A DNA stretch of 64,000 nucleotides from Candidatus Poribacteria bacterium (GTDB taxonomy: Bacteria; Poribacteria; WGA-4E; PCPOR2b). The position numbers were made by a program, and so were the translations under genes. Within the stretch, counting starts at the first letter, position 1. Every line of letters starts with the position of its first letter. The stretch spans positions 1-64,000 of the forward strand of contig JAJEAL010000020.1 in NCBI GenBank assembly GCA_022822785.1. The letters run 5' to 3'. Shown piece by piece: positions 5,006-40,246 of this stretch. The notes under the pieces were generated by a model. It saw only the letters and a list, made by a program, of their open reading frames with translations, made no database searches and had not been told where the DNA came from.

Positions 5006-5995
5006 TCACCCTTGCGGATAGAGCTCAGTAATTGATTCCAATAGCCCCTTCACCGCGGTTGGTGACGTGAATGTCTGCTGAATTTCACCTATTAACTCAA
5101 TCAACTCTGCATTCGTAAGGGATTGTAAACTACCGATGACTTCATTGGTTAGATTATCTACTGCTCTGACGACTTCTGATGTCACTCGGTTTTCATCCAA
5201 CGGGAATTGTCTGCCGTCTGAACCGAGTCGATCATAGACGCGCTGTGTTAATTCCAGATTGCTGAAAATTTCACAGTCACTGAAGATTGCACCGACGATA
5301 GTGTTTCGCATTTTACCAAGCCGTGACGAAATAGCACCGTAGCGACGACTCCTTAACACGTTCGCTAGGACGTAGCGAATTTCGTCAGATGTCAAATCTT
5401 TGAGAGTTTGCATGTCAATAAACAACGTCTCCGGCTTGACATACTCGTCCTCTTGAATACTTGATGACGCCTCCCCAGAAACAGGATCGCGCATTGTGTT
5501 GTTATCGTAGAGAGCATTGAACGTCCGCTTTGCCGTAACCGTTTGGTATGACTGAATACTGAATGCGTCATCCGTAATGACACGAGATTTCTGTGCCCCA
5601 CCTCCGCCAACAGCATAGCCGTAGATCATGCAATCTGCACATATTCCACAGGGCTTATTCCGGTTCAATGCACAAATATTTTCCTTTTCTTCCGGCCTAT
5701 TTCCTCTTGAATCCGCTGCGTAGAATAACAAGTTGTGTTGCCGCAGCAGTTCACGGCCCGTCCGGCGCTCAACAGCGGTCTGTTTCCGCTTGCTGATGGT
5801 GACACGAGAAATCACGTCTCGGTCTTCAAGTCCGGCATGGACGGAATCACGTGCCAACCCTTCACCAGAGCCTTCTGTGCGAAAAATCATCTCTGATTCC
5901 GCTTTCCGTAACACAATCAACGTTAGATAACGGCTTTGCGGAAAATTCTCATATTGTTTAACCATAAAGTCGGTGTAGTTATCCAGGATACTCAT
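5006..5995 (-). CDS. csc2: Csc2 (Cas7d), type I-D Cascade backbone
   Basis: 329 residues. Cas7 of type I-D, the repeated backbone subunit that coats the crRNA spacer. The glycine-rich stretch YAVGGGGAQKSRV and a four-cysteine cluster (Cys108, 116, 119, 122; KPCGICADC) fit the zinc-binding insert of Csc2. Its ATG overlaps the cas10d stop (ATGA), so the two are translationally coupled. Confidence 0.92.
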   Translation of the reverse strand: MSILDNYTDFMVKQYENFPQSRYLTLIVLRKAESEMIFRTEGSGEGLARDSVHAGLEDRDVISRVTISKRKQTAVERRTGRELLRQHNLLFYAADSRGNRPEEKENICALNRNKPCGICADCMIYGYAVGGGGAQKSRVITDDAFSIQSYQTVTAKRTFNALYDNNTMRDPVSGEASSSIQEDEYVKPETLFIDMQTLKDLTSDEIRYVLANVLRSRRYGAISSRLGKMRNTIVGAIFSDCEIFSNLELTQRVYDRLGSDGRQFPLDENRVTSEVVRAVDNLTNEVIGSLQSLTNAELIELIGEIQQTFTSPTAVKGLLESITELYPQG

Positions 5996-8835
5996 GACTG
6001 TTGTTCCTCCTTTTCTCTATCCCGTCTCGGAATCATCTCTGTAATGAAGTAGAGATATCCGGAACGAATTCGTTTCCGGTTTTCAAGTAAATCAAACAGA
6101 TTGCCTTGGTAAACATCTTTGTAAACTGAATCGAACAGCACCTTGACAAATTGCGAAATGTTTTCCAATTTCGTCGCGCCAAAAAAACGTGGGTCAAGGC
6201 GTTCAATTGCACGGGCAACCTCCTTCGACATAATTGCTCGCGCTTCCTCTTCAGTTTCACGCTCTAATTGCCAACGTTCAAGACTATCGAATGCCACATC
6301 AAGGGGTTTCGCGAGCGAATTATCCTTGAGACTATCGCCCTTTAATCGTCCCTCCCATGCAATGCGAGCGAGCTCCTTAATATAAGACATAATCAGGTCT
6401 CCTCCTTTCTGTGCTACAACATCGGCGATGGAGCCGGCCGTGTTGCGGACGGTTGTGAACTGTAACGGTTCATTTCCCGCTTGTTCACGTTTAATCATTC
6501 GGTGGGTTACATAGTAAAGTTCAAGTGCATCGTAATTCAAACTCCGAATCAACCGAACTAAATCATCGGTATCAATACTTCCAATCTTTGATCGGATGCC
6601 GTGCAACTTAAGTAGTTGTTCAAACGCTTGTTGTGTCATATCACTATCAAGGTTGTTGTCCGGCAACCATCCCCGAAATGCAGGCGGAATATGATCAATA
6701 AAAAAGTGGCTAAACTCATCATCAGAAAAGAGCGGAATTGACGAATCGGTTAGCACCGCGCGACAGCCCAAAAAACGTTGATACAGCAGGGCGTTTTCGA
6801 TAGCATATAAAACATCTTCCGTGTGATTCTTGCCGGGGGTATTGACAGGAATAGTCAAAATGTTGCCGAGGGCTTCAGAAAACTTTGGTAACGGGTTCCC
6901 ATTAACCTTTGTCCTACTAACTGGCAAAACCAACTGTGTAGCCTCTCGATAGCGACGCAACGCATCGTCTGTTTTAAGAAATACCGATGGAAAGTCAGGA
7001 TTACTGAACCGCTCCTGCGCTGCACGGAAAGCTCCGATGAACACATCAGTAAAAAACGAAATCGGATATAGGTGAATAAAAAACGTCGCTGTGTTTCCGC
7101 CTACGTTGTAGCAAATCTTGTCGAGCATGTACTGCGTCCGGCAAATGCTACAGACGCGGCGTTTCGGTTCACGTGATGTACCACCTTCAAGTCGATTGGA
7201 GAAATACTGGACCTTGATATTCGCCGGTACGTCCGGCTTCATCCACTCATCTGTTTCAAACTCCGCGCCGCAGGTACTACACTGGACATGATTGCTCCTC
7301 ACATAGCGTTCCAGATTTTTGGCAAAGTACCGCCCCCGGTCAGTAGCAAAACTGAAGTCAACATACTTGTGAACGTAATCCGCTAATATCTCAAATTCAC
7401 TCGCGGGGCGTGCGGTTTCCATAATGGCTGTACCATCATCGACAATCAATTCATAGATTTCGTCAATGTCTCTGCCACTCTTGTAAAGGTCGCGTCCGAT
7501 AATATAACCCCGATCGGATAGGGCGTTGAAACTTGCATATCGCGGACGACAAGCCGTATCCTCGATCTCCAATGGCAACTCAAGCAGATCATAGATGTAA
7601 TTCCATGCATCAGAAATGTTTTGGGAAAAATGCTTGTTCAAGAAGATATAGTATGTCCGCACTAGTTCCCCAATCCGCACAGCGGCCTCGTCGGGGGGCA
7701 GCAAATGAGCATCTTCAGCTAAGATTTCATCAATCAACGCAATCTGTGCCGCGGGGTCGGGATTCTTTTTACTCGGTTTTGTCCCTTGTAACTTTTCACG
7801 AGCGTTTTGGAGTCTTCCCCGACAACGATCATTCATGTCATCCACTTTAGCGGCGTACTTCCGCTCACTGATGATGTTCCGCACCTCATTCCAAATCTGC
7901 TGGAATGATAAACCAAGTGATAAACATTTCTCATCTACCTTGATACCGGCAGGGCTGCCCTGAATAAACTTCCTAAATTCTCCGCTAGTTTTTGATTCGA
8001 TCTGATTAACGACACGATTTCCAAGGGTCGCGATCTCGTTGGTTGTGATTTGGATCTCTCGATTGCGATCTACGAGATACGCTACACCATCAGGATAGTA
8101 AAGCAGTGGTAACAGGTCTTTTTCCGTTTCCATATGCTTCACAATCTCATTGTGAATGAGATTTGTCAAGATGCCACGTTGCTCACTCACCTTGTGGTAG
8201 ACAAACTGGTATTGAACATCAAGGATTCGGTTAAGCTCTCTGAGGAAATCTACCTTTTTTGCGCGTTCCTCAAGCGTTTTTGAGAGGTCAATCACATCCA
8301 TTGCCCGTATAATCGGGACTAGATAATTCAAAAGTCGATCCTTATCGTGTGAATACGGGTCATAATCCAGATCGAGGGTTTCATCGTAGGTGTGATAATG
8401 CCGCGAATGAGCGCGGATAAGAACTTCGATGTCCTTCAGGTAATCTTGCCATTCCGGAAAGAATCGTTCCATCTCAAGGGTCGTCAACACCGCACTGACA
8501 TTTTTCTCGTTTGCCAGATAATTGAATGAACGCTTCTCGTCTTGGAACTCCTGAAGTTTGTTCAAGTCATGAATGCTGAATGCACTGAACAGCAGTTGGA
8601 CCTCAAGATCATCCAAATCCAAGATTGGACGTAACCGCTCAAGAACGAAAATTCCGTTGGTAATATGAAGATAGAGCGATTCACCCGCCTTCGCGCCGTA
8701 TTGAATGATTTCCTGATAACCTCGCAACTTCTTATTGGCAATTTCCTCTACGTAAGTTTGGAAAAGGTTGTCTGCTTCTGAATAAACCCCAAGCAAAAAT
8801 AACAATTCTTCCCCTTCACGTTTCTGTTTTGCCAT
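5992..8835 (-). CDS. cas10d: Cas10d (Csc3), HD-nuclease large subunit of type I-D
   Basis: 947 residues. The N-terminal HD nuclease shows His57, His89-Asp90 (SIHDLNKL), His143/His146 and Asp180 (IRAMDVIDL). A central zinc finger has Cys519-x2-Cys522 and Cys562-x2-Cys565. The palm motif is degenerate (FSDDEF, about 703-708, in place of GGDD), as is usual for Cas10d, so cyclic oligoadenylate synthesis is not expected. In type I-D this protein carries the DNA-cutting HD domain absent from Cas3'. It is first in the operon, with GAGAGGAG before the ATG, and overlaps csc2 by 4 nt. Confidence 0.93.
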   Translation of the reverse strand: MAKQKREGEELLFLLGVYSEADNLFQTYVEEIANKKLRGYQEIIQYGAKAGESLYLHITNGIFVLERLRPILDLDDLEVQLLFSAFSIHDLNKLQEFQDEKRSFNYLANEKNVSAVLTTLEMERFFPEWQDYLKDIEVLIRAHSRHYHTYDETLDLDYDPYSHDKDRLLNYLVPIIRAMDVIDLSKTLEERAKKVDFLRELNRILDVQYQFVYHKVSEQRGILTNLIHNEIVKHMETEKDLLPLLYYPDGVAYLVDRNREIQITTNEIATLGNRVVNQIESKTSGEFRKFIQGSPAGIKVDEKCLSLGLSFQQIWNEVRNIISERKYAAKVDDMNDRCRGRLQNAREKLQGTKPSKKNPDPAAQIALIDEILAEDAHLLPPDEAAVRIGELVRTYYIFLNKHFSQNISDAWNYIYDLLELPLEIEDTACRPRYASFNALSDRGYIIGRDLYKSGRDIDEIYELIVDDGTAIMETARPASEFEILADYVHKYVDFSFATDRGRYFAKNLERYVRSNHVQCSTCGAEFETDEWMKPDVPANIKVQYFSNRLEGGTSREPKRRVCSICRTQYMLDKICYNVGGNTATFFIHLYPISFFTDVFIGAFRAAQERFSNPDFPSVFLKTDDALRRYREATQLVLPVSRTKVNGNPLPKFSEALGNILTIPVNTPGKNHTEDVLYAIENALLYQRFLGCRAVLTDSSIPLFSDDEFSHFFIDHIPPAFRGWLPDNNLDSDMTQQAFEQLLKLHGIRSKIGSIDTDDLVRLIRSLNYDALELYYVTHRMIKREQAGNEPLQFTTVRNTAGSIADVVAQKGGDLIMSYIKELARIAWEGRLKGDSLKDNSLAKPLDVAFDSLERWQLERETEEEARAIMSKEVARAIERLDPRFFGATKLENISQFVKVLFDSVYKDVYQGNLFDLLENRKRIRSGYLYFITEMIPRRDREKEEQQS

Positions 8836-8866: not shown

Positions 8867-8900
8867 ATTGTAACATACGTCCAGTCGCACAAACCTGTGC
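8867..8900 (-). promoter_or_regulatory. Candidate cas operon promoter with operator-like palindrome
   Basis: On the minus strand an extended -10, TGTTACAAT, lies about 32 nt before the cas10d ATG. The -35 region is poor but is covered by an inverted repeat GCACA-N4-TGTGC (8887-8900). An operator overlapping a weak -35 would suit a repressor or activator such as the WYL protein encoded nearby. The -10 is seen; the regulatory role is inference. Confidence 0.5.
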
Positions 8901-8941
8901 CCGATCGAAAAAAAATTAACCAAGCTTCGTTTTTTATACAT

Positions 8942-8970
8942 TTGACCTCTCTTGGATTCAATGTTATAAT
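8942..8970 (+). promoter_or_regulatory. Strong sigma70-type promoter divergent from cas10d
   Basis: TTGACC at 8942-8947, exactly 17 bp, then a consensus TATAAT at 8965-8970. It points away from the cas operon and drives no protein gene; a structured sequence with a terminator begins about 7 nt after the -10. Confidence 0.72.
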
Positions 8971-8976
8971 GATAAC

Positions 8977-9025
8977 GTGCAGGACCGAACCCATCCTTGG
9001 CGGTGGATGTAGGCCCTGCTTTTTT
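8977..9025 (+). ncRNA. Predicted ~49-nt structured RNA beside the cas operon
   Basis: The expected transcript starts near 8977 and folds into one long interrupted hairpin: GCAGG (8979-8983) with CCTGC (9015-9019), CC with GG inside it, then CATCC (8992-8996) with GGATG (9005-9009) closing an 8-nt loop. T6 follows at 9020-9025, so the hairpin also serves as an intrinsic terminator. Promoter, hairpin and T-tract are seen. Function is unknown: a small regulator of the cas genes, a CreA-like antitoxin RNA, or a decoy promoter-terminator unit are all possible. Confidence 0.55.
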
Positions 9026-9139
9026 ATGGCCATAGTTTTTTAAGAATTGAGTTAAAATACAGATAGTCTTTCATGTGCAAATCTATTGGTCTAAATTAGA
9101 TATACATAATACTAACATAACAATAATAAAAGCGCAAGC

Positions 9140-9178
9140 AAAAAATAAAGGCTCCCGCATCAACTAAGCCGGTGAGCC
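9140..9178 (-). terminator. Intrinsic terminator after the 339-residue gene
   Basis: On the minus strand GGCTC...GAGCC (9150-9178) with inner CC/GG and GC/GC pairs is followed by TTTATTTTTT (9140-9149). It lies about 185 bp beyond the stop at 9363 and would insulate the gene from the divergent cas promoter region. Confidence 0.65.
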
Positions 9179-9243
9179 CCTATTGCCTGCTAACTCAAAC
9201 TTGAGATTCTTCTAGACAAATTGCATCAAACATAATACCAACA

Positions 9244-9268
9244 TCTTTCAATCTCGTCTTTCAATCTC
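9244..9268. repeat. Tandem 12-bp repeat resembling a CRISPR repeat 3' end
   Basis: TCTTTCAATCTC at 9244-9255 and again at 9257-9268, period 13. Read on the minus strand each copy contains GATTGAAAG, similar to the ATTGAAA(C/G) end of many CRISPR repeats. There is no full-length repeat or spacer structure, so this is noted only as a similarity beside cas genes. Confidence 0.45.
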
Positions 9269-9362
9269 ATCACCGAGAGTCTTTCTCTCATAATAACACA
9301 ACCTGTCCCGTTTGGTCAAGAGCAGAACCAACTATCTTGGTCCTGCCCTATAATACGCCATC

Positions 9363-10382
9363 TCACTCCGACTTATCACCCGCCTCCGCAGGCAGCACCT
9401 CAACCTCGGTGGTACGCAGGTCCTGCTCTGGTGCTTTCAATGCAAGCGTCAGCCGCTCTAAAACACCAACCAGTTCCTGAGTCTCACCGCCAATGGCTTT
9501 CTGTTCCGGTGCTTTCAGCGCAAGCGTCAGTCGCTCTAAAACACCAATAAGTTGAGGGGGAGACAAATTCACTGGTATCTGTTGTTCAGCAGCCGCCGAC
9601 AACTTACGCAAACTCTCTACTGTCTTTATTAACATATTTGTCAATAGTTGCATCTCTACCAATGAGTGCCCACCTCTTTCTAGTTCACTGTTAATCCGAT
9701 CTACCTGCTTGGCTAAAAGCGCAGCCTGCTCCTCCTGAGCGGTGAACCGAATATCACGCAACGTCTGTTTATGTGCATCCCGAGCCTCCCGCCATGTTGC
9801 ACCGTATTTCGCCTCAGGCCAACGCACCGAGCCGGGCTTCAGATACGCCAACCGAGGAATCAAAAACGCTCGAAGCTGCGGCTCACCTAGTAAATGCTTT
9901 TGCGCCAACCGCTTTAACGTCTTATCCACCTTTATTAACTCCTTGACTGCATCAGAGGTAGAGAATCCCTGGGCATGACAACGGACTATAAACACTCGAT
10001 GTTCATCTGAGATAAAAGACGAAAGGTGCTGCCGCAACTCATCGCGCATGACCGCTGTAATCTCCCTGTTTTCATCAGATGCTAGCCAACTGAAATCAGG
10101 GATTGCCCCTTCACCCAATGCCTTTGCTACATCCCGGCTGATACGCGCATTAGCTGCCTCCCAAAAAGACGCTTCATCATCTAACAAATCAAAAAATAGG
10201 TTCAAATCCGCTTTTACCTCGTTAATCCATTCCTGTCCCTCTTTTTCAATCTTTGTACTGCTCAAATTAATAGCTTGGATGAAATTTGCTCTTAGCTCTT
10301 CAAGCTGGGCCCTTTTAGAATACTTGGAATAATCCAAATCAGATTCCAGAAGTGGGGGACCGTCGTCTAGTATATCCATCAT
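9363..10382 (-). CDS. Uncharacterised 339-residue protein between WYL regulator and cas10d
   Basis: I do not recognise the family. The protein is hydrophilic, largely helical, with no signal peptide or membrane segment. Residues 15-60 and 205-265 look coiled-coil prone. The C-terminus holds a 26-residue tandem duplication (GVLERLTLALKAPEQ twice), encoded by 40-bp near-identical DNA units at 9430-9469 and 9508-9547; it ends in an acidic tail. The ATG follows GAGAGGTGG. Position between a WYL regulator and a cas operon suggests an accessory or regulatory role, but that is context only. Confidence 0.75.
   Translation of the reverse strand: MMDILDDGPPLLESDLDYSKYSKRAQLEELRANFIQAINLSSTKIEKEGQEWINEVKADLNLFFDLLDDEASFWEAANARISRDVAKALGEGAIPDFSWLASDENREITAVMRDELRQHLSSFISDEHRVFIVRCHAQGFSTSDAVKELIKVDKTLKRLAQKHLLGEPQLRAFLIPRLAYLKPGSVRWPEAKYGATWREARDAHKQTLRDIRFTAQEEQAALLAKQVDRINSELERGGHSLVEMQLLTNMLIKTVESLRKLSAAAEQQIPVNLSPPQLIGVLERLTLALKAPEQKAIGGETQELVGVLERLTLALKAPEQDLRTTEVEVLPAEAGDKSE
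9430..9547. repeat. In-frame tandem duplication inside the 339-residue gene
   Basis: Two 40-bp units (9430-9469 and 9508-9547), differing at a few positions, with a 78-bp period (26 codons). The duplication keeps the frame and repeats one amphipathic helix, so copy number could change by slippage or recombination. Confidence 0.8.
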
Positions 10383-10688
10383 TTTCCACCTCTCATCAAA
10401 AAGAGATTAAATTTCCTAGTAGGCTCCGAGGTGCCTACCTGTTTAAACCGCTCAGAAACCAGTCATAGTGGGAGCACTCAACCCGTTTTTACCCCTATCA
10501 GATTCTCGCATTTCCTCGAAAAACTATGAAAACTATGAAACTCCCTAACAACTCTCAATAAAGTTTACCATTGGTATCGCTGTATTTGCAACATTTTTTT
10601 CACATGTGTTAAAATAAAAATTCCCATCCCGTTATAGATGTAAAAATCCTTCCGTCTCCCTTCCAGTCTTCCACTCCTACCTTCCTCC
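10383..10688. other. Intergenic region upstream of the 339-residue gene
   Basis: 306 bp without a gene. On the minus strand a weak promoter can be proposed (TTGCAA 10586-10591, 18 bp, TAAACT 10562-10567). A short direct repeat AAAACTATG occurs twice around 10520-10540. The stretch next to the WYL gene end is pyrimidine rich. Nothing else is evident. Confidence 0.35.
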
Positions 10689-11657
10689 TTAACTCTTGCG
10701 ATACACCGCTACCATCTTCTCCGCTGTCTCCGCGACCCATTCCCGTAATTCCCTCGGTTCAATCACCTCCGCCTCCTCTCCCCAACCCAACACCCACCAG
10801 CCAACCTCCTGCCAACCCGCCACTGTCGCTTCAAAGCGAAGACCCCTATTAGTGTCGTGTATCTTCTGCGTCGAATGCCACTGCACCTCTCGGATAAGAG
10901 GCGCGATGCGGGAGGCGAACTCAATAACAACGGGCGTCTCCGGTCCAAGCCTGAAATCCCAACTCTTCTCCATGTGCTTCTGCACAGAAAAATCTTCGGG
11001 AATGGTGTACGAAAGGTGGCTGATGAAGAGAGTGTGGATGCGGTTGATACGGAAGGTTAAAATCTGATCCGATCTTTCAGTGTGTCCAATCACATACCAA
11101 GCGTGTTTGCGAAATAGGACTGCGTACGGTGAAAGCCGATGCCGCTCCCGCGTTCCACTGCTAAAAGAATCGTATACCATATTGACCTGGCGTCGTTCCC
11201 GGATGGCTTTGTATAATTGCTCTTTGTGGGGGTGTGCGTCATCGATTTGGGTAATCTGTTGGTGGGGGACTTCAATCTGCGGGGCAATCTGATTTAAGGT
11301 GTCGTTTGTCCGTTTCGGTAGATTGGAGGTAATCTTATGGATGGCGCTGTTGAGGACCGCTATCGCTTGCTCCCCCTCCGCTGCCTGATAAAAACGGGCT
11401 GCTGTAACAAGTGCAAGTGCCTCCTCAAAGTTAAGGTTCAGTGCAGGGAGAAACAGATCAGAGACCATCTCATACCCCTGTTTGCCACGGGGAACAATCT
11501 CGATGCCCATCTCACGCAACAAATCAATATCACGCTGGATGGTTGCTGGATTAACCTCAAAGTGTGCTGCCAACCGAGGGCGTGTCCACCGACGCGGCTC
11601 TTTGTGGATCAGGGAGGCGACTTCGAGGATCCGTGCCATCTGATATTTTCGGTACAT
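10689..11657 (-). CDS. WYL-domain transcriptional regulator
   Basis: 322 residues from the ATG at 11657, chosen because AAAGGAT precedes it. Residues 1-65 are a DeoR/HTH_11-type winged helix (HFEVNPATIQRDIDLL). Residues 135-215 form the WYL domain (SPYAVLFRKHAWYVIGH, then FRINRI), followed by a C-terminal WCX-type section. WYL proteins bind nucleic-acid-like ligands and often control defence genes; in Synechocystis the WYL protein Sll7009 represses the type I-D system. Its position upstream of this I-D operon, on the same strand, makes it the prime candidate regulator of the cas genes. Confidence 0.87.
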   Translation of the reverse strand: MYRKYQMARILEVASLIHKEPRRWTRPRLAAHFEVNPATIQRDIDLLREMGIEIVPRGKQGYEMVSDLFLPALNLNFEEALALVTAARFYQAAEGEQAIAVLNSAIHKITSNLPKRTNDTLNQIAPQIEVPHQQITQIDDAHPHKEQLYKAIRERRQVNMVYDSFSSGTRERHRLSPYAVLFRKHAWYVIGHTERSDQILTFRINRIHTLFISHLSYTIPEDFSVQKHMEKSWDFRLGPETPVVIEFASRIAPLIREVQWHSTQKIHDTNRGLRFEATVAGWQEVGWWVLGWGEEAEVIEPRELREWVAETAEKMVAVYRKS

Positions 11658-11807
11658 GATATCCTTTCGGTGCTTTTTCGGGCGAGGAAATCTCACTCCT
11701 GCGACAACCACCGATATTCTCTGGTATGCCGGACATAGAGAATCAGCGCATTCGGATTCGCGGGCTTTGTGGAAATCTATGGCAAGACAGTTCAACGCAA
11801 GGCGGGT

Positions 11808-12026
11808 TTATAGGTTCTCCCATTCTTCTCTATCAATTCCTGCTTCCCTGAGAATTTGTCTGAGTAGATTCCTCCCTATGTCACCCCTGTGTGGGTTAGG
11901 AATGCGAACCCGTAACTGTCCTTTGAGCATAAATTGATGCTTACTCCCTGAATAGGGACCACTAAATCCAACCTGCCGCAAGTAGCTGATCAACTCTCTA
12001 CGTTTAATTGGACCAAATGTTGGCAC
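11808..12026 (-). CDS. hicA: HicA-family mRNA interferase toxin
   Basis: 72 residues, a double-stranded RNA-binding-fold toxin. The family signature GSKHQFMLKG carries the catalytic His, followed by VRIPNPHRGDIGRNLLRQIL. The start is a GTG at 12026 that overlaps the hicB stop (TAGTG), so translation is coupled. Toxin follows antitoxin in transcription order. Confidence 0.92.
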   Translation of the reverse strand: MPTFGPIKRRELISYLRQVGFSGPYSGSKHQFMLKGQLRVRIPNPHRGDIGRNLLRQILREAGIDREEWENL

Positions 12027-12271
12027 TAGGCGGCATCCTCTTTGACATTCAATTCAATGCCATCAATCTGCGGGATGGAGTGTCCCATCTTCAAGCCGAT
12101 TAAAATCCATTCTTCTAGGACTTCTCGCAATTCCTCTCTACAAACTTCTAACGTATCCGCATTCGCCCAAACTCCCTGCAGGTCGGGAATGCTGCCAAAG
12201 TAGCCCTCCCCATCGGGTAATATCTCATAATGTGCTTTACGCATAGCTGCGTGGATATAATCCGTTAGCAT
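12026..12271 (-). CDS. hicB: HicB-family antitoxin
   Basis: 81 residues. The degenerate RNase H-like core YEILPDGEGYFGSIPDLQGV is typical of HicB. No C-terminal DNA-binding domain is present, so autoregulation would need another route. AAGGTGAG precedes the ATG. It forms a pair with the overlapping hicA. Confidence 0.9.
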   Translation of the reverse strand: MLTDYIHAAMRKAHYEILPDGEGYFGSIPDLQGVWANADTLEVCREELREVLEEWILIGLKMGHSIPQIDGIELNVKEDAA

Positions 12272-12297
12272 AACTCACCTTTCCGTCTCCATTGGTG

Positions 12298-13161
12298 TTA
12301 TTCGTTGCCTTCTTTGGTGGTTTTCTTCGCCTGACTGGCGAGCCGCCCAGCCTGTTTTGCCAAGCGTTTGGCAGCCTCAATCTGTTTCATCAATCCGCGG
12401 TTCGTCCAAGCAACACCCGCCAAATACCGAATCTCCTTGCCATCGATCGCCGGTGCATTCAACGCCTCTGCAGCGAGGTAAACCTGCAAACCACTATCTG
12501 CCGTATGGCGGAGCCCCGTATTGACTCCTCTACCATCGACCTCAACGCTGACAGTCAGATCGCCTCTCACAAAAGCAGGGCGAAAATCTTTGCTGAGACC
12601 GAGGAATACGCCATTCAACACTTTGCTCATACCGATGTCCTCCACAAAACGACGAGTCCCGATACCGATATGTCCGGTGATATGATGGATGCGTGGCAGA
12701 GAAAACTGCTTGCTAACCGCAATAAACGCCGATCTGCGTTCATAACGCTCAATATCGTCTAATCCGCTATCAATACGGTCACCGATATTTTCTATCCCGA
12801 CCGCGATGTTGGGAATAGCCCCAGCTTCGCGAAGCAGAAGCACTTTCAGATTTCCTAGTAAAAAAGTCCGTTGATGGTGCCGAACACCGGTCAAACCAAT
12901 CTCGACCCGATCGAAAAGCCCAAAATCAAGTTGGAGCGCCGCTTCGTCGCGTGGTAATTCGCCTGCGTTGCGGAAGCCAAAGTAGGTGCCAAGGTTAAAT
13001 ATCCCGTGTTCAACAACCTGTCCGGTCGGTATATCTACCAAGCCGCTATCCCGAAAATAGGGAGCAGCCCAAAGGCAGCGCGAACAGAGCATAGTAATGC
13101 AAAATAGAGAAATGAGCAGCCGTTGCAGCGCAATCGGAAAAAGGTTACAAATCAGGTTCAT
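12298..13161 (-). CDS. Predicted exported beta-barrel-like protein
   Basis: 287 residues from the ATG at 13161; a TTG four codons upstream is less likely. The N-terminus is a signal peptide ending near LWAAPYF. The mature part alternates hydrophobic and polar residues in strand-like runs (FNLGTYFGFRNA, GLFDRVEIGLTGVRH, NIAVGIENIGDR), as in outer membrane barrels. The C-terminus is a basic, helical Ala/Lys tail (KRLAKQAGRLASQAKK), odd for a barrel. Function unknown. Confidence 0.65.
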   Translation of the reverse strand: MNLICNLFPIALQRLLISLFCITMLCSRCLWAAPYFRDSGLVDIPTGQVVEHGIFNLGTYFGFRNAGELPRDEAALQLDFGLFDRVEIGLTGVRHHQRTFLLGNLKVLLLREAGAIPNIAVGIENIGDRIDSGLDDIERYERRSAFIAVSKQFSLPRIHHITGHIGIGTRRFVEDIGMSKVLNGVFLGLSKDFRPAFVRGDLTVSVEVDGRGVNTGLRHTADSGLQVYLAAEALNAPAIDGKEIRYLAGVAWTNRGLMKQIEAAKRLAKQAGRLASQAKKTTKEGNE

Positions 13162-13284
13162 CGGTCTATCCAAAGGTTTGAAACTGTTTCAAGGCGGGGA
13201 CCCACAAAGGTCGAAATTAGGCTGCTGCTGCACAGCAATCTCTCTTTGTGAGGAAGGGAGTTAATGCGGAGTGGTTATTCCAAA

Positions 13285-13491
13285 TTATAGTGAACACTAT
13301 AAATATGTAGACGTTCACCAATAGTGCCCCTTATTGAAGTCTCATCAAGTCCCCCTAAACCCCTCTGATAAGAGGGGAAAGACAAGGGAGCAAATCCCCC
13401 TCTTATCTGCTCCCCTTGTCAGGGGAGTTGGGGGATTTAGCGGGGTGGTTGTGCAGTGAAAGTGTCTAAATAATTCTAAAATCTACCATAA
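13285..13491. repeat. MITE-like element, CCATAA family, copy 2 (207 bp)
   Basis: Ends TTATAGTGAAC and ATCTACCATAA. The core has a long palindromic run built from CCCCTCTGATAAGAGGGG and CCCCTTGTCAGGGG. It is the same length as, and nearly identical to, the copy at 40247-40453, which implies recent duplication. It occupies most of the gap between the beta-barrel-like gene and the 141-residue gene. Confidence 0.8.
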
Positions 13492-13565
13492 TATCTTAGC
13501 GATTGAGCCTAAAGAGAAGGGACCGCACATGGAGGTAGCGGTCCCTCCTATGGTGAATTTTGTGG

Positions 13566-13991
13566 TTAATCGAGGCCAAGCTGGTTCATAAATGTAACCA
13601 TCTTAGCTTCCGCCTGCTCGGCGACCTGTGCCAGCGTTTCCGGATCCACTTTTGTCTCCTGAATCCGTTCATCGGTGTTTGTCGCGAGACAGAAACCCAG
13701 ATTGTGCTTGAGATCGTGCATCGCTTGCTCGATATGAGCACTGACAGGGCCAGCGGGGTACATCCACTGCCGTGCTCTGTTCTGTTTCAGGTTGATGTGA
13801 CAGTGGCCCGTTCCGCCTTGCTTTTTTGCCTCGCCAAAGCAGTCAAGACGCAAGATTTCTTGGTCATAGGCGAAGACAGATGCTGCAGGCCCATACCCAG
13901 CGCGGTCATCGCGCCAATAGACTTCTAGTCGGACATTATCTTCTAGCGTATATTCGACCAAATCTCTTCTTCCTTGTTGTTCTGGCGCCAT
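13566..13991 (-). CDS. Conserved-looking hypothetical protein
   Basis: 141 soluble residues that I cannot assign. Visible features are a strand-rich N-terminal half (VRLEVYWRDD, ILRLDCFG), a central GHCHINLKQNRARQW section and a helical C-terminus. AAAGGAATAACG precedes the ATG. It is divergent from pglZ across 366 bp. Confidence 0.65.
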   Translation of the reverse strand: MAPEQQGRRDLVEYTLEDNVRLEVYWRDDRAGYGPAASVFAYDQEILRLDCFGEAKKQGGTGHCHINLKQNRARQWMYPAGPVSAHIEQAMHDLKHNLGFCLATNTDERIQETKVDPETLAQVAEQAEAKMVTFMNQLGLD

Positions 13992-14230
13992 CGTTATTCC
14001 TTTCGATTGTGGATGGTTTGGTTGGTAAAAGCGTCTGCAATTCTAACACCACACCAACGAGATGAGAACATCATCGCCTTGTAGTCGAATCGGTGCGCTT
14101 TTCTCAGATCCATACTCTCAGCATTCTACTATAAAGCGTGCACAAGGTCAAGTCCTATTTTTTTACTTTACTATCCGATTCGCCTAAACTTATCTCACCC
14201 TTTTAGGGCTATTTATTTTTCCTGTCGTAT

Positions 14231-14252
14231 TCACAGGTTGTCTAACCTGTGA
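14231..14252. promoter_or_regulatory. Perfect 9-bp palindrome upstream of pglZ promoter
   Basis: TCACAGGTT-N4-AACCTGTGA at 14231-14252, ending 23 bp before the -35 of the pglZ promoter. It is a candidate operator shared by the two divergent genes. No T-tract follows, so it is not a simple terminator. Confidence 0.5.
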
Positions 14253-14275
14253 TCACCCGTTCCTTTTGAATCATC

Positions 14276-14304
14276 TTGACAGCTCTTAAGCAACCAAGTA
14301 AAAT
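14276..14304 (+). promoter_or_regulatory. Sigma70-type promoter of pglZ
   Basis: Consensus TTGACA at 14276-14281, 17-bp spacer, TAAAAT at 14299-14304. Expected start near 14311, giving a leader of about 47 nt before the ATG at 14358. Confidence 0.75.
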
Positions 14305-14357
14305 ATGCAAAGTGTATCTCAGCTTTTATACAACACCCACCGAGGCGCATCGAAATC

Positions 14358-16796
14358 ATGTCCACCGACAAGTCAGAAGCTTGGATTGATAACTATTTAA
14401 CCAATTCAGTAACTACCCCGGGGCGCTGGCTCTTTATCCACGATACGGCGCATATCTTCCCCAAACTTCACTCCGTAATGCTCTTCGAGCGCAAATACGA
14501 GGTCATCTTTTTCGAGGAAATTCTAGAGATACGGCAACGCTTAGAGCGGCACAAAGATAACCCGGGAGCATTCGATGTATGTATTGTTTCTCGGCAATCA
14601 CATGAGGCGAATCGCGAAATTCTTGACTACATTGTCCGGAGTCAATCCGTTGAGGTCACGCCTCAATCGATTCTCCAATCCGCTCAGCCCGGATACAGCT
14701 GGGCCCATTCAGTCAACCAATTGCGAGGCGACGATTTTTGGACAATTTTTGAGCGACTTCAGGCATACCGCCTGAACTATCCCCGCGCTATAACGCCTGC
14801 TGAAGCGATGAATCTCCTGCTTTCGGCACAGCTAGATATCGATTTGCGAGCCGACCTCCCTGTCCGAGAAGTAGTCCAGATATGGCAACAGATGGAGAAA
14901 GATGCAGAGCTAATCGCTTGGGGCGAGAGATACCCTCAACTGTTTCAGGCGTTGAATCTCAAGGTGCGGGCAGCGCTGCCGATTATGGATAAGCTGGAAG
15001 GAGACGCAGATTTTGTGCACTTTCTCTGGACTTCCTACTCGTTGGCACAGCATAATAAAGATTACGACCTTTTCCTTCCCGAACTCTTCGGGGACACGAT
15101 TTGGAGAAAATACGGTAATACCCCACCCCAGGAGATACGGAACGCATGTCCGCAACTCATCCGGAGCGATCCAGAGCGAGTCATGGACCAAATTAAACAG
15201 ACAGAAATCTGGCTGACCCAAGACCAACAACGCCTTCAACTTTTCCAACGGTGGATAGGGCTTGATACTTCCAATCTTAGTAAAACGGTCGAATATCTAA
15301 AAAAAGAGATTCTCTTTTGTATTCCGATGCGGGAAGCCTTGCGTCTGATTGCCGCACAGCTCTGTCGTTTGCCCGACTCGTTGGATCCGACTGAGATTCA
15401 CAAAATTATTGAAAATATTCAGCGGCAACATCTCTTTCAAACAAATACCGAAAATTACCTGCGAATTAAAGATACATTCCGGGCATTTACCGATTTGGTT
15501 GCGTTGAATCAGCTAATCGCAAACGTAGAACGCAAGAGTTGGTTGGCTGAAGGGCATCGGAGTCAAGAACAGAATCACGACCCTTTGACCCCCCTGACAA
15601 GGGGGGAGGCGAAGGGCGGCCCCCCCTTGTCTTTCCCCCCTTCGCACGGGGGTTGTCCCGATAAAACCGGTGATGTAACGGATTGGGGATATCCGGCGCA
15701 CCTCTCAAAGCTGGAGTTGATGGCAGCTGAATTGGAACAACTAAACTTCCAGTGTGATTTCCTACCCAATCCTGTGATTGATGAACTCCTTGGGCGTGTC
15801 AAGGGATTGATAAATGAATATAACACGAAATTCGCCCAACAGATTGCCACCACCTTCCCGGCGCGCCTAGCCGCAAATAGGGATAAGCCTTCCCTCACAG
15901 TCGATTTTTTGGAGACGCTTTTTTTGCCCCGCTATCAGCAGTACATCGGGGAAAGAGCGCGGGCAGCGTACATTTTTATGTTTGATGGGATGCGGTGGGA
16001 TACATGGGAAGCGCTCAAACCGAAGGTATTGAGCACATTTCAAGGGCGGCTTGCCCTCGACGGTATTTTTCCGTTGCTTTCGATTCTGCCATCCACGACA
16101 GAGCATAATAGATACGCCATTTTTACGGGAGAGTTTCCCAACGGCGATGCAGACAAGGATTGGGGAGATGTGTTGGTACACGCTTTCCAAAACCGTGGCA
16201 TCCACGGGGTGCGGTGGATAAGTGGCACCGAAAAAAATCAGGCGGAGATGCTCGCACTTATTGAGGCGGATGAAATTCCTGTCAAAATTTTCAATTTTAC
16301 GTTCATCGATCAGAAACTGCAGGGGGCAAACCAAAACCTCTCCACAGTTTATGAGGAGATTAAGGGCAGCTTTGAACTGCTGGTACAGCCCTATCTAGAG
16401 CGGATGCCGAGCGACTCACTTATCTTTCTGATGTCAGATCGCGGGTTTATCGAGTCCACAGCCGATCAGAAACTTTCGGAGGACACTGTTCGCATCTCCT
16501 CCAGTGTGACATACTACCAACGCTACCTCAGTTTATCAGGTCCACCGACAGATTTAATGGACTTCGCCTGTTTCAGTGCGGACCAAATCGGCTTACAACC
16601 TGATGAAGATACATCCCACTATGCGTTTGCCACCGGACGTAGCCAAATCCCTCCTTTTACCAGCGAAAATGATTTTGTACCACCTAGGCCATCCCGTTAT
16701 GTGCACGGTGGAGTTTCCATGCAGGAGATGATCACACCGTGTGTGGTCTTTGTACCAACAGCGAAAGGACAGTTACAGATATTCCCACTACAATAG
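14358..16796 (+). CDS. PglZ-domain protein (orphan)
   Basis: 812 residues. The C-terminal half is the alkaline-phosphatase-fold PglZ domain: FMFDGMRWDTWE (metal Asp543), LPSTTEH (nucleophile candidates Thr580/Thr581), SDRGF at 694 where the superfamily normally has SDHG, and the family end HGGVSMQEMITP (His783). PglZ is a core protein of BREX phage defence, but no other brx/pgl gene lies nearby, so this is an orphan. Residues about 408-437 are encoded by an in-frame palindromic repeat. The SDHG to SDRG change may alter metal binding. Confidence 0.8.
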   Translation: MSTDKSEAWIDNYLTNSVTTPGRWLFIHDTAHIFPKLHSVMLFERKYEVIFFEEILEIRQRLERHKDNPGAFDVCIVSRQSHEANREILDYIVRSQSVEVTPQSILQSAQPGYSWAHSVNQLRGDDFWTIFERLQAYRLNYPRAITPAEAMNLLLSAQLDIDLRADLPVREVVQIWQQMEKDAELIAWGERYPQLFQALNLKVRAALPIMDKLEGDADFVHFLWTSYSLAQHNKDYDLFLPELFGDTIWRKYGNTPPQEIRNACPQLIRSDPERVMDQIKQTEIWLTQDQQRLQLFQRWIGLDTSNLSKTVEYLKKEILFCIPMREALRLIAAQLCRLPDSLDPTEIHKIIENIQRQHLFQTNTENYLRIKDTFRAFTDLVALNQLIANVERKSWLAEGHRSQEQNHDPLTPLTRGEAKGGPPLSFPPSHGGCPDKTGDVTDWGYPAHLSKLELMAAELEQLNFQCDFLPNPVIDELLGRVKGLINEYNTKFAQQIATTFPARLAANRDKPSLTVDFLETLFLPRYQQYIGERARAAYIFMFDGMRWDTWEALKPKVLSTFQGRLALDGIFPLLSILPSTTEHNRYAIFTGEFPNGDADKDWGDVLVHAFQNRGIHGVRWISGTEKNQAEMLALIEADEIPVKIFNFTFIDQKLQGANQNLSTVYEEIKGSFELLVQPYLERMPSDSLIFLMSDRGFIESTADQKLSEDTVRISSSVTYYQRYLSLSGPPTDLMDFACFSADQIGLQPDEDTSHYAFATGRSQIPPFTSENDFVPPRPSRYVHGGVSMQEMITPCVVFVPTAKGQLQIFPLQ
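15579..15668. repeat. Palindromic repeat inserted in frame inside pglZ
   Basis: About 90 bp made of CCCCCCTGACAAGGGGGG, GGCGAAGGG and matching CCCTTGTCTTTCCCCCC sections. The same core lies in the intergenic element at 19473-19612. It adds roughly 30 residues rich in Pro and Gly (LTPLTRGEAKGGPPLS) with no frame change or stop, between the helical N-terminal part and the PglZ domain. Confidence 0.8.
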
Positions 16797-16829
16797 ACAC
16801 AATGCGCTTATGGAGGATTAACAAACAAA

Positions 16830-17996
16830 ATGAATATGGACATTTTAAGTATCTGGGCATACGTTTGGGATGTTATTGATGGAGGCGTTGATTCGGTAAT
16901 TTCGACCCTCAAGCACGAAATCGGCTTGGACACGCTCAGTGTTGCGACATGCTATCATAGCGTTGATCATCTGCGCGTTCACCGTCTGGAGAACAACTTT
17001 TATAGCTCGCAGGCGGCAATCTATTTTCAGCCGGATTCAGTGCTGTATAAAAACACCCGAATCCAACCGCCTGTGTCGCCGCTCGCGGAAAACACGAACC
17101 CGCTGCGAAGCATCTCTGACGGTTGTGAACGGCACGGCATGAAACTCTCATCGTGGACGGTGTGCCTCCACAACTCGACGATTGGGCGAAATCAGCCAGA
17201 GGTAGCCCAGCGCGATGTATTTGGCAACCCGTGCTGGCATGCCCTCTGTCCCGCAAATCAGGATGTGCGCGAGTATATGCGGGCACTTGTAACGGACCTG
17301 ACGACAAACTATAATTTCGCTACCGTCGAGTTGGAATCGTGCGATTATCAAGGGGGCCGTCATCACCACGGGCATGAGAAAATTGGTATCCCGCTCGGAG
17401 AGACGGATCGACTCCTGCTTGGGTTATGTTTCTGCGAAAGCTGTCGCAAATCTGCGGATAAAGAGGGGATTGACGTTACTGCCGTTGCAAACGGTGTGCG
17501 ATCGGAGCTCGCAGCGAGCTTTGAGTCCGGAAGCCCTATCCAGATTGGGTTTGACGAATTTTGTGATAAAGTCCCCGAAACCCGTGCGTATATCCAAATG
17601 CGCGAATCTGTCGTCAGTTCACTTATCGCAGAGATTAAATCTGTGTCCAAAGCCTCAATCTCGTCGATGGGCATGGGAGATCGGCGATATTCAGGGCTAA
17701 ACACAGAAGAGGTCCGAGGGATTGCCGACTGGTTCGAGATTTTGTGCTACACACCGTCAAGGGAATCCGTTGAAATGTCTGTAAAAAACGCCGCTGCACT
17801 GATGAACGGAGAGGCAAATCGGGTCTGGGTTGGTCTCTGTGCTTATCCGCCAGCAAGCCCAACCGCTGAAACGCTTGCCGAAAATGTCGAAGCAGTTGCA
17901 GGGCTCGGTGTCCGTGCTATATCTTTCTACAACTACGGGATCATGCCCAAGCGTAACCTACAATGGGTCAAGGCTGCGGTTGAAGGAATTAAGTAG
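16830..17996 (+). CDS. TIM-barrel-like hypothetical protein, possible glycoside hydrolase relative
   Basis: 388 residues, soluble, no signal peptide. Motifs such as HGMKLSSWTVCLHNS, CPANQDVREY, ATVELESCDY and LCFCESCRK recall sugar-active TIM barrels with a cysteine-paired insert. Glu and Asp follow predicted strand ends, but I cannot name the catalytic pair. It starts 34 bp after pglZ on the same strand, so may be cotranscribed with it. Fold plausible, substrate unknown. Confidence 0.6.
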   Translation: MNMDILSIWAYVWDVIDGGVDSVISTLKHEIGLDTLSVATCYHSVDHLRVHRLENNFYSSQAAIYFQPDSVLYKNTRIQPPVSPLAENTNPLRSISDGCERHGMKLSSWTVCLHNSTIGRNQPEVAQRDVFGNPCWHALCPANQDVREYMRALVTDLTTNYNFATVELESCDYQGGRHHHGHEKIGIPLGETDRLLLGLCFCESCRKSADKEGIDVTAVANGVRSELAASFESGSPIQIGFDEFCDKVPETRAYIQMRESVVSSLIAEIKSVSKASISSMGMGDRRYSGLNTEEVRGIADWFEILCYTPSRESVEMSVKNAAALMNGEANRVWVGLCAYPPASPTAETLAENVEAVAGLGVRAISFYNYGIMPKRNLQWVKAAVEGIK

Positions 17997-18036
17997 GCCC
18001 GCTTGTTCAAGGTCATACACACAAAGGAGAAACATA

Positions 18037-18267
18037 ATGACAGTTCATGAAGCTACTATTGCAAAGATTCAACAACTCCCCGAATCTCTCGTCCATGAAG
18101 TTAGTGATTTTGTAGACTTCTTGTTGACAAAACATGATAGCACACGCTGGCAGTTATGGACACACTTTGCTGAAGTTTTAGAAACTGCTGAATCGGACTT
18201 TGTTGACTACTTATCTAACCTAGAAGACTACGAGAACCGTTTGGCACGTGGGGAAATCCAATGGTAA
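18037..18267 (+). CDS. DUF2281-type antitoxin
   Basis: 76 residues from the ATG at 18037, which has AAAGGAG upstream. The family start TVHEATIAKIQQLPES is followed by LVHEVSDFVDFLL. Such proteins are antitoxins for PIN or MazF-type toxins. It overlaps the mazF reading frame by 7 nt. With mazF broken (see next gene) it may now be a relic. Confidence 0.82.
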   Translation: MTVHEATIAKIQQLPESLVHEVSDFVDFLLTKHDSTRWQLWTHFAEVLETAESDFVDYLSNLEDYENRLARGEIQW

Positions 18268-18605
18268 CAATCAGTCGTGGGGATGTGGTCTTATGTGACT
18301 TGAATCCGGTCGTCGGCACAGAACAAGCCGGCGTATGACCTGCGGTCATACTGCAAACAGATCGCGCGAATGCAGTGAGCCCCCATACAATTATCGCGCC
18401 CTTTACCACAAAAATCCGACAGGTACTTTTGCCTTCTCATGTCTTGGTGCCCGTAGGAGTCGGCGGCTTGAGTCGAGATTCTGTAGTTCTTTGTGAGCAG
18501 ATACGAGTGATAGATAAACGTCGAATTGTCAGAGTTCTCGGCCACTTGGATACCCGCTATCTCGCAGAAATAGAGAAAGCTTTGTGTACGGTTTTGGAGT
18601 TGTAG
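18261..18605 (+). pseudogene. mazF: mazF/pemK toxin gene with in-frame nonsense codon
   Basis: The frame reads ISRGDVVLCDLNPVVGTEQAG, one more residue, then TGA at 18336-18338 (codon 26), and continues in frame as PAVILQTDRANAV to the stop at 18605, with normal MazF C-terminal sections (VLCEQIRVIDKRRIV). Intact relatives have Gln-x-Gly-x-Arg-Pro here, so the TGA replaces the conserved Arg and is explained by CGA to TGA. The stop lies in a perfect 8-bp palindrome, GTATGACC-TGC-GGTCATAC (18334-18352). Full length otherwise (115 codons). Either a real inactivation or a sequencing error. Confidence 0.85.
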
Positions 18606-18708
18606 GTCCCATTGGCGGGACAAACACTTTATCTTTAGTTGCTATGCCCTGGGTAAGGAATGGGAAGTGGCTACTATGTTTAGGAATTTTTCAGAAGGAG
18701 ATTGGCGT

Positions 18709-19458
18709 ATGAGATTTGAGGGAAGAGTTGCACTGGTAACCGGTGCCAGCCGTGGGATCGGCAGCGCAACTGCGATTAAACTTGCCGGTGAGGGTGCCGA
18801 TGTTGCGGTGCACTATGTGAGATCGGCGAAACCGGCAGAGGCGGTTTGCGAGGAGATCCGTGCGCTTGGACGAAGCGCGATTGCCTTTCAGGCTGATATC
18901 GCCGATCGACGCGCAGTCAACGAAATGGTCGCGCAGGCTACGGCGGCACTCGGTCCCATCGAGCTGCTTGTGAATAACGCCGGGGATGTCGGCAATATGG
19001 ATTTCGACCAACTTACACCCGAACACTGGGACCGGATTATTGGGATTAACCTGACAGGACCCTTCAACGTCATCTGGGCGGTCAAGGACGGGATGGCGCA
19101 ACAGAAGTTTGGACGGATTGTCAATGTCTCATCAATTGCCGCGTTGGCACCCCGACCTAATCAGTTCGCCTATGCAGCCGCAAAGGCAGGCGTAATCTCT
19201 TTCACAAAATCTGCCTGCGAACCCTTAGCGAAGCACAATGTCCGGGTAAACTCGCTTGCCCCCGGTGCCATTGATACCGACATGATCCACGAGGTCTCGC
19301 CGGAGATGCTTGAACACCTGCGCTCAACCACACCGCTGCAACGTTTGGGGACGCCCGATGAGATGGCGAATGTCATCGCATTTCTGCTCAGCGAAGAGTC
19401 TAGCTATATGACCGGCTCAACAGTCATCGCAAGCGGAGGACGGGTTCTGTTCCCGTAA
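18709..19458 (+). CDS. Short-chain dehydrogenase/reductase (FabG-like)
   Basis: 249 residues from the ATG at 18709, chosen for AAGGAG upstream. Classical SDR: cofactor motif TGASRGIG (9-16), NNAG, catalytic Ser (IVNVSSIAAL), and Tyr-x3-Lys (YAAAKAG). The C-terminal YMTGSTVIASGG resembles 3-oxoacyl-ACP reductases and sugar dehydrogenases. The neighbouring aldolase, enolase-family and Gfo/Idh genes favour a role in sugar or sugar-acid oxidation rather than fatty acid synthesis. Confidence 0.9.
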   Translation: MRFEGRVALVTGASRGIGSATAIKLAGEGADVAVHYVRSAKPAEAVCEEIRALGRSAIAFQADIADRRAVNEMVAQATAALGPIELLVNNAGDVGNMDFDQLTPEHWDRIIGINLTGPFNVIWAVKDGMAQQKFGRIVNVSSIAALAPRPNQFAYAAAKAGVISFTKSACEPLAKHNVRVNSLAPGAIDTDMIHEVSPEMLEHLRSTTPLQRLGTPDEMANVIAFLLSEESSYMTGSTVIASGGRVLFP

Positions 19459-19472
19459 CACATGGATCTACA

Positions 19473-19612
19473 GTCCCCCTAACAAGGGGGGAAGCGAAGG
19501 GGTCCCTTGTCTTTCCCCCCCTTCGCAGGGGGGTTCAAGGGGCGGGTGCCCTCTGGGCGGCGGGGGTGGCTGTGCATTGAGAGTATCTAAGTGATTCTAA
19601 AACCTACCATAA
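19473..19612. repeat. CCATAA-family element, copy 3 (left end missing)
   Basis: Right end ACCTACCATAA abuts the TAA stop of the convergent PhyH gene at 19613. The core has CCCCCTAACAAGGGGGG, GAAGCGAAGGG and CCCCCCCTTCGCAGGGGGG and matches the insert in pglZ. No left TTATGG end is present, so it is truncated or recombined. Confidence 0.65.
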
Positions 19613-20803: not shown

Positions 20804-20905
20804 CGCTTTTCTCCTGTCAAATAGATCTGAAAAGGCAAAGTCGGACGGTACTGTTAAGCCTCGCAAACCCCTGATACGCTCAGAGATCGTTTATCCTCTA
20901 CCACA

Positions 20906-21223
20906 TAGGACTTACGCAATTGGTTCATAAGTCCCCTTGCAACTCCCCCGATAAATCGGGATGCAGGTTGGAAACTCTCGGAACAGAGCACCTGACCAGG
21001 TTTCCCCCCTGACAAGGGGGGCTAGGGGGGTTAGGGAATCTTCTAAAATTCGCTTTGAACCTAACTGCCATTTCGTCGTACCTGAAAGGCGGATTAGGGG
21101 ATCTTCTCCCCCCGATAGAGCGGGATTCAAAGCAACCTGTCTTTCCCCTCTTATCAGAGGGGTTAGGGGATTTAGGGGGTTAAAAGAAATCTCACGCCGG
21201 GTGCTAAATTTGCGTGAGTCCTA
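20906..21223. repeat. MITE-like element, TAGGACTTACGCAA ends
   Basis: 318 bp bounded by TAGGACTTACGCAA (20906-20919) and TTGCGTGAGTCCTA (21210-21223), inverted repeats with 13 of 14 matches. The interior contains several GC-rich palindromes (CCCCCCTGACAAGGGGGG; CCCCTCTTATCAGAGGGG). No coding capacity is recognised. It fills most of the 475-bp gap between the PhyH and dapA-like genes. Confidence 0.75.
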
Positions 21224-21278
21224 AAAAAAAGAACCAGTTAGCCGAGGCGTACTATTCCGTGCACAGGCTCCAATCCCT

Positions 21279-22181: not shown

Positions 22182-22480
22182 AGTCATTCCTCCTAAATGA
22201 TGATAAGATAGATGGAGTCTTGCCCTAAACGGGCGTACCTCCAATTTTCTCAAAAAGTCTCGCTATATTTTATTGACAGAAATTTTGAATGTTATTCTAT
22301 CTTCGCAGAAATTGGTGGATGGGTCAAGTGAAAAATATGCCTATTTGGGGTGCAAAAGGTGGCTTTTTTAATGTTGATCCGAGTTATCCAATCGGTTACA
22401 CTATCCGGACCCCTTACGTTGAATTGTACCGTTTTTCGTAAAAAGACCTCCATGAAATGTAGACCTGACGGAGAAACACT

Positions 22481-40196: not shown

Positions 40197-40246
40197 ATCA
40201 TCAATTTTTTGGGCTACATCTTTTTTCCGTCTTTAATAGAGCGGGA

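What the first reader, a model, noticed from the sequence alone, without database searches (positions are those of the whole stretch)
8942..9025. Orphan promoter and ~49-nt terminated RNA divergent from cas10d
A near-consensus promoter (TTGACC, 17 bp, TATAAT) fires away from the cas operon into a structured sequence that ends in T6 after about 49 nt. No protein gene follows. Small RNAs within cas loci (CreA-type antitoxins, tracr-like or autoregulatory guides) are known in other subtypes. A compact promoter-hairpin-terminator unit next to a I-D locus could be such an RNA.
Basis: partly seen in the sequence, partly recalled or inferred. Interest (0 to 1): 0.62.

Follow-up and report, generated by a model that had tools for sequence, protein, structure and literature searches.

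The report
Orphan DUF3800-type RNA beside CRISPR I-D
Beside a bacterial CRISPR immune operon sits a real, conserved 49-nucleotide RNA gene that elsewhere travels with a suspected nuclease (DUF3800), and next to it, on the other strand, is a degenerate CRISPR guide that in relatives appears to hold that nuclease gene silent, which suggests a CRISPR-guarded toxin module of which this genome keeps only the RNA parts.

Summary
A promoter (TTGACC-17-TATAAT, 8942-8970 +) drives a 49-nt hairpin RNA ending in T6 (8977-9025). It is a conserved RNA gene: 17 clear single copies in 85 Poribacteria genomes and two in the KSB1 phylum. Between the window and its nearest relative the RNA is 96% identical, flanks 36-37%.

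It is not a CRISPR-type guide: no similarity to the repeat, and it also occurs beside I-B, I-D-like, type I restriction and TIR genes. It is the partner RNA of one DUF3800 (RNase-H-fold) clade. All five intact clade genes found, in two phyla, have it tail-to-tail 19-45 nt downstream; the second KSB1-phylum copy was found by protein search alone. At four or five other loci only a DUF3800 fragment is left. Distant DUF3800 genes carry sequence-unrelated hairpins with the same GA/GUA internal loop.

On the minus strand (9319-9103) lies a degenerate mini-CRISPR whose spacer matches a nearby promoter 14 of 15 beside the I-D PAM GTT. In relatives the same guide targets DUF3800 promoters. The window lost DUF3800 but kept guide, target and RNA.

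Likely role (inferred): RNA neutraliser of a CRISPR-repressed DUF3800 toxin.

The parts
8942..8970 (+). sRNA promoter: TTGACC, 17 bp, TG-extended TATAAT
   Evidence: conserved at nearly all copies, hexamers more conserved than spacer
8977..9025 (+). 49-nt structured sRNA (DUF3800-clade hairpin RNA) with T6 terminator tail
8979..9019 (+). Hairpin: lower stem columns 3-10/36-43, asymmetric GAA / GUA internal loop, inner stem, hexaloop
8887..8900 (.). Imperfect palindrome GCACAAACCTGTGC in front of the cas10d extended -10 (8867-8872); putative operator, perhaps of the WYL regulator
   Evidence: conserved in G003, G009, G001, G044, G022, G030; binding not tested
5992..8835 (-). cas10d (Csc3), first gene of the I-D operon, divergent from the sRNA
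   Evidence: TIGR03174 E 5.6e-44
9290..9319 (-). Promoter of the creA-like gene: TTGACC-18-TATTAT
9258..9283 (-). psiR1, degenerate CRISPR repeat, followed by a 13-bp duplication (9245-9257) that repeats the handle GAGATTGAAAG
   Evidence: aligned to the own array repeat; 1/2000 shuffles as good; sub-threshold Rfam CRISPR-DR47 hit at 9258-9293
9215..9244 (-). psiS spacer analogue: ATGTTGGTATTATGTTTGATGCAATTTGTC
9194..9214 (-). psiR2: TAGAAGAATCTCAAGTTTGAG, 20/21 to the own CRISPR repeat
   Evidence: 0/2000 shuffles as good; own array at G000:C13:45142-45387
9140..9180 (-). Terminator hairpin of the creA-like gene
9103..9121 (-). Target of the creA-like RNA: PAM GTT (9121-9119) plus protospacer ATGTTAGTATTATGTA, over a promoter TTGCGC-17-TAGTAT (9137-9109)
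   Evidence: 14/15 scored positions, pos. 6 skipped; 0/20000 shuffles reach it
10689..11795 (-). WYL-domain regulator, clade A
   Evidence: PF13280/PF25583; same clade beside several other copies

Best explanation
The element is a constitutively expressed, structured 49-nt RNA belonging to a family of hairpin RNAs paired with DUF3800 (RNase-H-fold) genes, lying tail-to-tail with them. Shown: the RNA gene is real and under selection; it accompanies one DUF3800 clade without exception in two phyla; the DUF3800 gene often decays while the RNA stays. Shown by sequence: in Poribacteria a crRNA-like RNA (creA: degenerate repeat, spacer, repeat) next to these modules carries a seed match plus I-D PAM against the DUF3800 promoter, or against the promoter of a small ORF in G003 and G043; the window keeps creA and its target on the minus strand. 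Inferred: Cascade guided by CreA represses the DUF3800 gene, the protein is a toxin-like nuclease, and the hairpin RNA binds the protein and keeps it in check, so that loss of Cascade (anti-CRISPR) or of host transcription would free it. The window holds the module without its DUF3800 gene: an orphan neutraliser RNA plus a guide with nothing left to silence.
For: CM search: 18 of 85 Poribacteria genomes have a hit, one per genome, 17 of them strong; KSB1 copies in G098 and G171. DUF3800 clade c13: intact genes in G055, G028, G063, G098, G171 all have the RNA convergent just downstream; G171 was found by protein search only, then the RNA by CM (E 1.4e-8) with its own TTGACA-17-TATATT promoter. 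DUF3800 fragments adjoin the RNA in G060, G035, G067, G045, plus a very short one in G072. The other DUF3800 clade (DESGQ) has a different tandem RNA in 11 of 14 cases and never this one. Distant DUF3800s (22-30% identity) have convergent hairpins with the same GA/GUA loop; two reach 0/100 shuffles, one of them unseen beforehand. RNA without protein is common, protein without RNA was not seen in this clade, as expected of antitoxin and toxin. creA plus PAM plus seed target in 8 loci by strict scan, more at DUF3800 promoters.
Against: No DUF3800 of this clade was found in the window's genome or in most other carriers, yet the RNA is under strong selection there, so it may have another job. No DUF3800 protein has been shown toxic in anything read here. 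No transcript data. Base-pair covariation is no better than shuffles because the RNA hardly varies. G018 and G064 copies have no visible defence partner. L177 and eight plasmid DUF3800 genes lack the motif. The creA in the window carries a 13-bp duplication and may be decaying.
Confidence: 0.5

Rival explanations
1. The RNA regulates the adjacent defence operon itself (by pairing with its mRNA, or as ligand or partner of the WYL regulator); DUF3800 is an optional passenger.
For: Promoter back-to-back with the first gene of a defence operon at nearly all resolved loci (I-D x7, I-D-like x2, I-B, type I RM, TIR); WYL genes next to many copies; RNA kept where DUF3800 is absent.
Against: WYL clade-A loci without the RNA exist (G004, G030, G053, G023); the KSB1 copy has the DUF3800 but no relative of the WYL or cas genes in the stretch read; downstream genes are unrelated, so no common mRNA target.
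Confidence: 0.25
2. The RNA is a cofactor or guide that activates DUF3800 (a ribonucleoprotein effector) rather than neutralising it.
For: Conserved protein-binding-type internal loop in diverged RNAs; DUF3800 predicted RNase H fold with known ncRNA association (PMC10910872).
Against: An effector RNA should be lost with its protein, but RNA outlives protein here; no variable guide segment.
Confidence: 0.15
3. CreA-type, CreR-type, tracr-like or Racr-like RNA of the I-D system.
For: Location in the cas leader; such an RNA does exist nearby on the other strand.
Against: No repeat similarity on either strand (1829/2000 and 520/2000 shuffles as good); present in genomes without cas10d and beside RM systems.
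Confidence: 0.03
4. A decaying leftover without function in this genome.
For: Degraded copies exist in G001 and G042; DUF3800 is gone from the window locus.
Against: 47/49 identity to G003 against 36-37% in flanks, intact promoter and tail.
Confidence: 0.07

Closest known systems
DUF3800-associated RNA motifs (Weinberg et al. 2017; Rfam RF02969 DUF3800-I, RF02968 DUF3800-IX)
   Same: Small structured intergenic RNA tied to DUF3800 genes.
   Different: No Rfam DUF3800 model scores it; here convergent with the gene, with its own promoter, and inside CRISPR-repressed modules.
CreTA / CrePA (CRISPR-repressed toxin modules; PMC8501985, PMC12737573)
   Same: The minus-strand RNA has psiR-psiS-psiR, PAM, and psiS pairing at positions 1-5 and 7-11, as described for CreA.
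   Different: Subtype I-D with GTN PAM; in relatives the repressed gene is DUF3800 or a new small ORF instead of an RNA toxin or a KilA-N protein; toxin gene absent in the window.
CreR (crRNA-like autorepressor of cas operons)
   Same: crRNA-like RNA near the cas promoter.
   Different: The window target lies at a separate promoter 270 nt upstream of cas10d; in relatives it is the promoter of DUF3800 or the small ORF.
Type III toxin-antitoxin systems (ToxIN; from general knowledge)
   Same: Would work like one: an RNA holding a nuclease-fold protein in check.
   Different: Single non-repeated RNA on the opposite strand with its own promoter; protein family unrelated.

Membership tests
DUF3800-associated RNA | Gene neighbour of DUF3800 | tested here: met
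   Five of five intact clade genes, two phyla; not met at the window locus itself, where DUF3800 is absent.
DUF3800-associated RNA | Matches a described Rfam DUF3800 model | tested here: not met
   No hit at gathering or lax E-value, so it is a new class, not a member of a listed family.
DUF3800-associated RNA | Conserved secondary structure | tested here: inconclusive
   Two-stem hairpin with GA/GUA loop recurs in diverged RNAs, but covariation within the alignment is not above shuffles.
CreA/CreR, for the 8977-9025 RNA | CRISPR-repeat-like segments | tested here: not met
CreA, for the minus-strand RNA 9283-9140 | One or two degenerate repeats flanking a spacer analogue | tested here: met
   psiR1 and psiR2 against own repeat
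CreA, for the minus-strand RNA | psiS nt 1-5 and 7-11 match a nearby promoter next to the subtype PAM | tested here: met
   GTT PAM, only position 6 differs within the first 15; I-D PAM GTN from PMC10212523. It holds for the handle copy after the 13-bp duplication.
CreA, for the minus-strand RNA | Target drives a toxin gene | tested here: inconclusive
   DUF3800 or small ORF in relatives; none left in the window; toxicity unknown.
CreA, for the minus-strand RNA | Cascade-dependent repression | not testable with these tools
   needs an experiment
tracrRNA / Racr | Anti-repeat or repeat mimic | tested here: not met
Type III toxin-antitoxin | Tandem-repeat RNA antitoxin encoded upstream of the toxin on the same strand | tested here: not met
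   Single unit, convergent; the functional analogy stays open.

The most novel reading that the evidence does not exclude
A double-locked CRISPR-guarded effector: I-D Cascade with a crRNA-like RNA shuts off transcription of a DUF3800 nuclease-fold protein, and a separate constitutive hairpin RNA neutralises any protein made. Anti-CRISPRs open the first lock, transcription shut-off opens the second. The RNA lock persists, under selection, after the protein is lost, and the module is swapped between CRISPR, restriction and TIR loci.
Probability: 0.33. Interest if true: 0.86.

Novelty: new variant of a known kind. Interest (0 to 1): 0.72.

Why it matters
DUF3800 genes and their RNAs have been known since 2017 without a function, and they turn up as accessory genes of class 2 CRISPR systems. 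Finding DUF3800 promoters under what look like CRISPR guides, each beside a clade-specific RNA, gives the first concrete and testable hypothesis that I know of (CRISPR-repressed toxin plus RNA neutraliser), and would extend CreTA/CrePA-like control to subtype I-D in an uncultured sponge-associated phylum.

Tried and rejected
Multi-copy repeat or mobile element: single copy in own genome. Phage or plasmid origin: no match in IMG/VR by pattern, in phages or in plasmids. Known RNA family: no Rfam hit. Functional RNA on the minus strand instead: the fold is stronger there (z -4.8) but the promoter and T-run are conserved only for the plus strand, so rejected. Terminator of the WYL or cas transcript: no U-tract on that strand. 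Covariation proof: failed, too little variation. Remnant of DUF3800 or of the small ORF in the window: none; a 16-aa minus-strand ORF (9075-9025) is not conserved in G001. ORF 9363-10382: no family and no homologue in the loci. AlphaFold of the DUF3800 clade: mean pLDDT 47, unusable; no solved relative. The strict guide-target scan also gave two chance hits without repeat context (L054, L105). GA/GUA hairpin search at eight actinobacterial and Bacillus plasmid DUF3800 genes: none. Not computed: pairing of the RNA loop with Shine-Dalgarno sites of neighbouring genes.

Full report
What was checked. The promoter, the hairpin and the T6 tail are at the stated coordinates. Alone they are unremarkable: promoter-like sites are common in this AT-rich stretch and the fold is only z -1.7. 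The case rests on comparison.

Conservation. The genome is a Candidatus Poribacteria MAG (record titles). The element is single-copy. A blastn search of relatives found it in 15 of 59 genomes, two of these degraded or partial. A covariance model found 18 of 85 Poribacteria genomes with one copy each, 17 strong and one weak (G006, 32 bits). A pattern search over 84,980 species found only Poribacteria and one KSB1 genome. The -35 and -10 hexamers are conserved at 73% and 77% mean pairwise identity, the spacer between them at 49%. Window and G003 differ at 2 of 49 RNA positions while the flanks are 36-37% identical. In KSB1 genomes the T-run is replaced by a separate terminator hairpin, so the conserved hairpin is not there merely to terminate.

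Neighbourhood. The sRNA promoter stands back-to-back with the first gene of a defence operon: canonical I-D in seven genomes, an I-D-like variant in two, I-B in one, type I restriction in three, a TIR gene in KSB1. In one Poribacteria genus several genomes share one chromosomal site where the defence system has been swapped while the sRNA stayed; the window and G001 share another, with I-D in one and a different type I system in the other. So the RNA is not a component of I-D.

The partner. On the sRNA's 3' side lies a DUF3800 gene of one clade, tail-to-tail, in G055, G028 and G063, truncated in G060, as remnants in G035, G067 and G045, and as a very short trace in G072. KSB1 G098 has the same pair with 46% protein identity. 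A protein search then found the next relative, G171 at 60% identity to the KSB1 protein, and the model found the RNA at the predicted place. A second DUF3800 clade has a quite different tandem ~105-nt RNA just downstream in 11 of 14 cases. More distant DUF3800 genes in G005, G082 and G126 have convergent hairpins of unrelated sequence but the same plan: lower stem, GA/GUA internal loop, inner stem. This loop resembles a bulged-G (loop E) motif, which is my reading, not a computed result. DUF3800 was already known to associate with ncRNAs (PMC10910872, which cites Weinberg 2017) and Rfam lists DUF3800-I and -IX, but none of those models matches.

The guide. In the window the minus strand at 9319-9140 carries a promoter, a degenerate repeat, a spacer analogue, a second degenerate repeat 20/21 identical to the genome's own CRISPR repeat, and a terminator. 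The spacer analogue matches a site 126 nt downstream at 14 of 15 scored positions (position 6 skipped), immediately after GTT; 0 of 20,000 shuffles reach this. CreA RNAs use exactly nucleotides 1-5 and 7-11 plus the PAM (PMC8501985), and GTN is the I-D PAM (PMC10212523). Guide and target change together between loci (window, G003, G043). In G063 (two loci), G037, G030, G028, G066, G023, G036, G058 and G068 the matching site, of varying quality, is at a DUF3800 promoter; in G003 and G043 it is at the promoter of a small ORF of unknown function, the two proteins being 52% identical. G063 contig 29 and G028 show the full order WYL, creA, DUF3800, then the convergent sRNA; G063 goes on to an I-D-like operon, while the G028 contig ends there. 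The window has the same order without DUF3800. A 13-bp duplication beside the handle suggests the guide is drifting; the seed match holds only for the handle copy nearest the spacer.

Mechanism. Shown: a real RNA gene, a strict clade-level link to DUF3800, and guide-target matches with PAM. Inferred: repression by Cascade, toxicity of DUF3800, neutralisation by the RNA. The pattern of loss (RNA without protein often, protein without RNA never in this clade) is that of an antitoxin outliving a toxin; the strong constraint in genomes that no longer have the protein fits a protective RNA but equally a second role at the defence operon.

Verdict. Observation confirmed; interpretation partly supported. 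A new class of a known kind (DUF3800-linked RNA) inside what looks like a new variant of CRISPR-repressed modules. Specialists would find the DUF3800-creA link surprising and directly testable.

Noticed in passing
window 9103-9319 minus strand; L092 361-560, L051 6650-6870, L125 5500-5650, L127 8290-8430, L128 6160-6330, L095 370-540: crRNA-like creA genes with GTN-PAM seed targets, in relatives at DUF3800 or small-ORF promoters, in Poribacteria mostly at I-D loci.
   Followed up: yes
L128 6974-7200, L127 7430-7660, L132 8251-8570 and others: A tandem (1-3 copies) ~105-nt multi-branched RNA (GCAGAAAACCACC...GTTTTCGGCTG...CTTCTGC) downstream of the other DUF3800 clade and upstream of cas10d; no Rfam hit.
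   Followed up: partly
L051 6868-7107 and L092 361-62 (minus): Small ORF (about 80-100 aa; MNDLNPSQEIQ.../MKNLDPSLEIQ..., 52% identical) under a creA-targeted promoter; a possible new CreP-like protein.
   Followed up: partly
window 8887-8900: Palindrome GCACAGGTTTGTGC conserved in front of I-D, I-D-like and other type I cas operons that share the WYL clade-A regulator; likely its operator.
   Followed up: partly
window 13284-13492 and 40246-40454: 209-nt direct repeat at 92% identity, with related fragments elsewhere ending in ATCTACCATAA; looks like a dispersed non-coding repeat.
   Followed up: no
L048 (G001) against window 8871-24000: Same chromosomal site with I-D in the window and a different type I cas set in G001, WYL and flanks conserved: cassette exchange at a defence site, with sRNA and creA decayed in G001.
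   Followed up: partly
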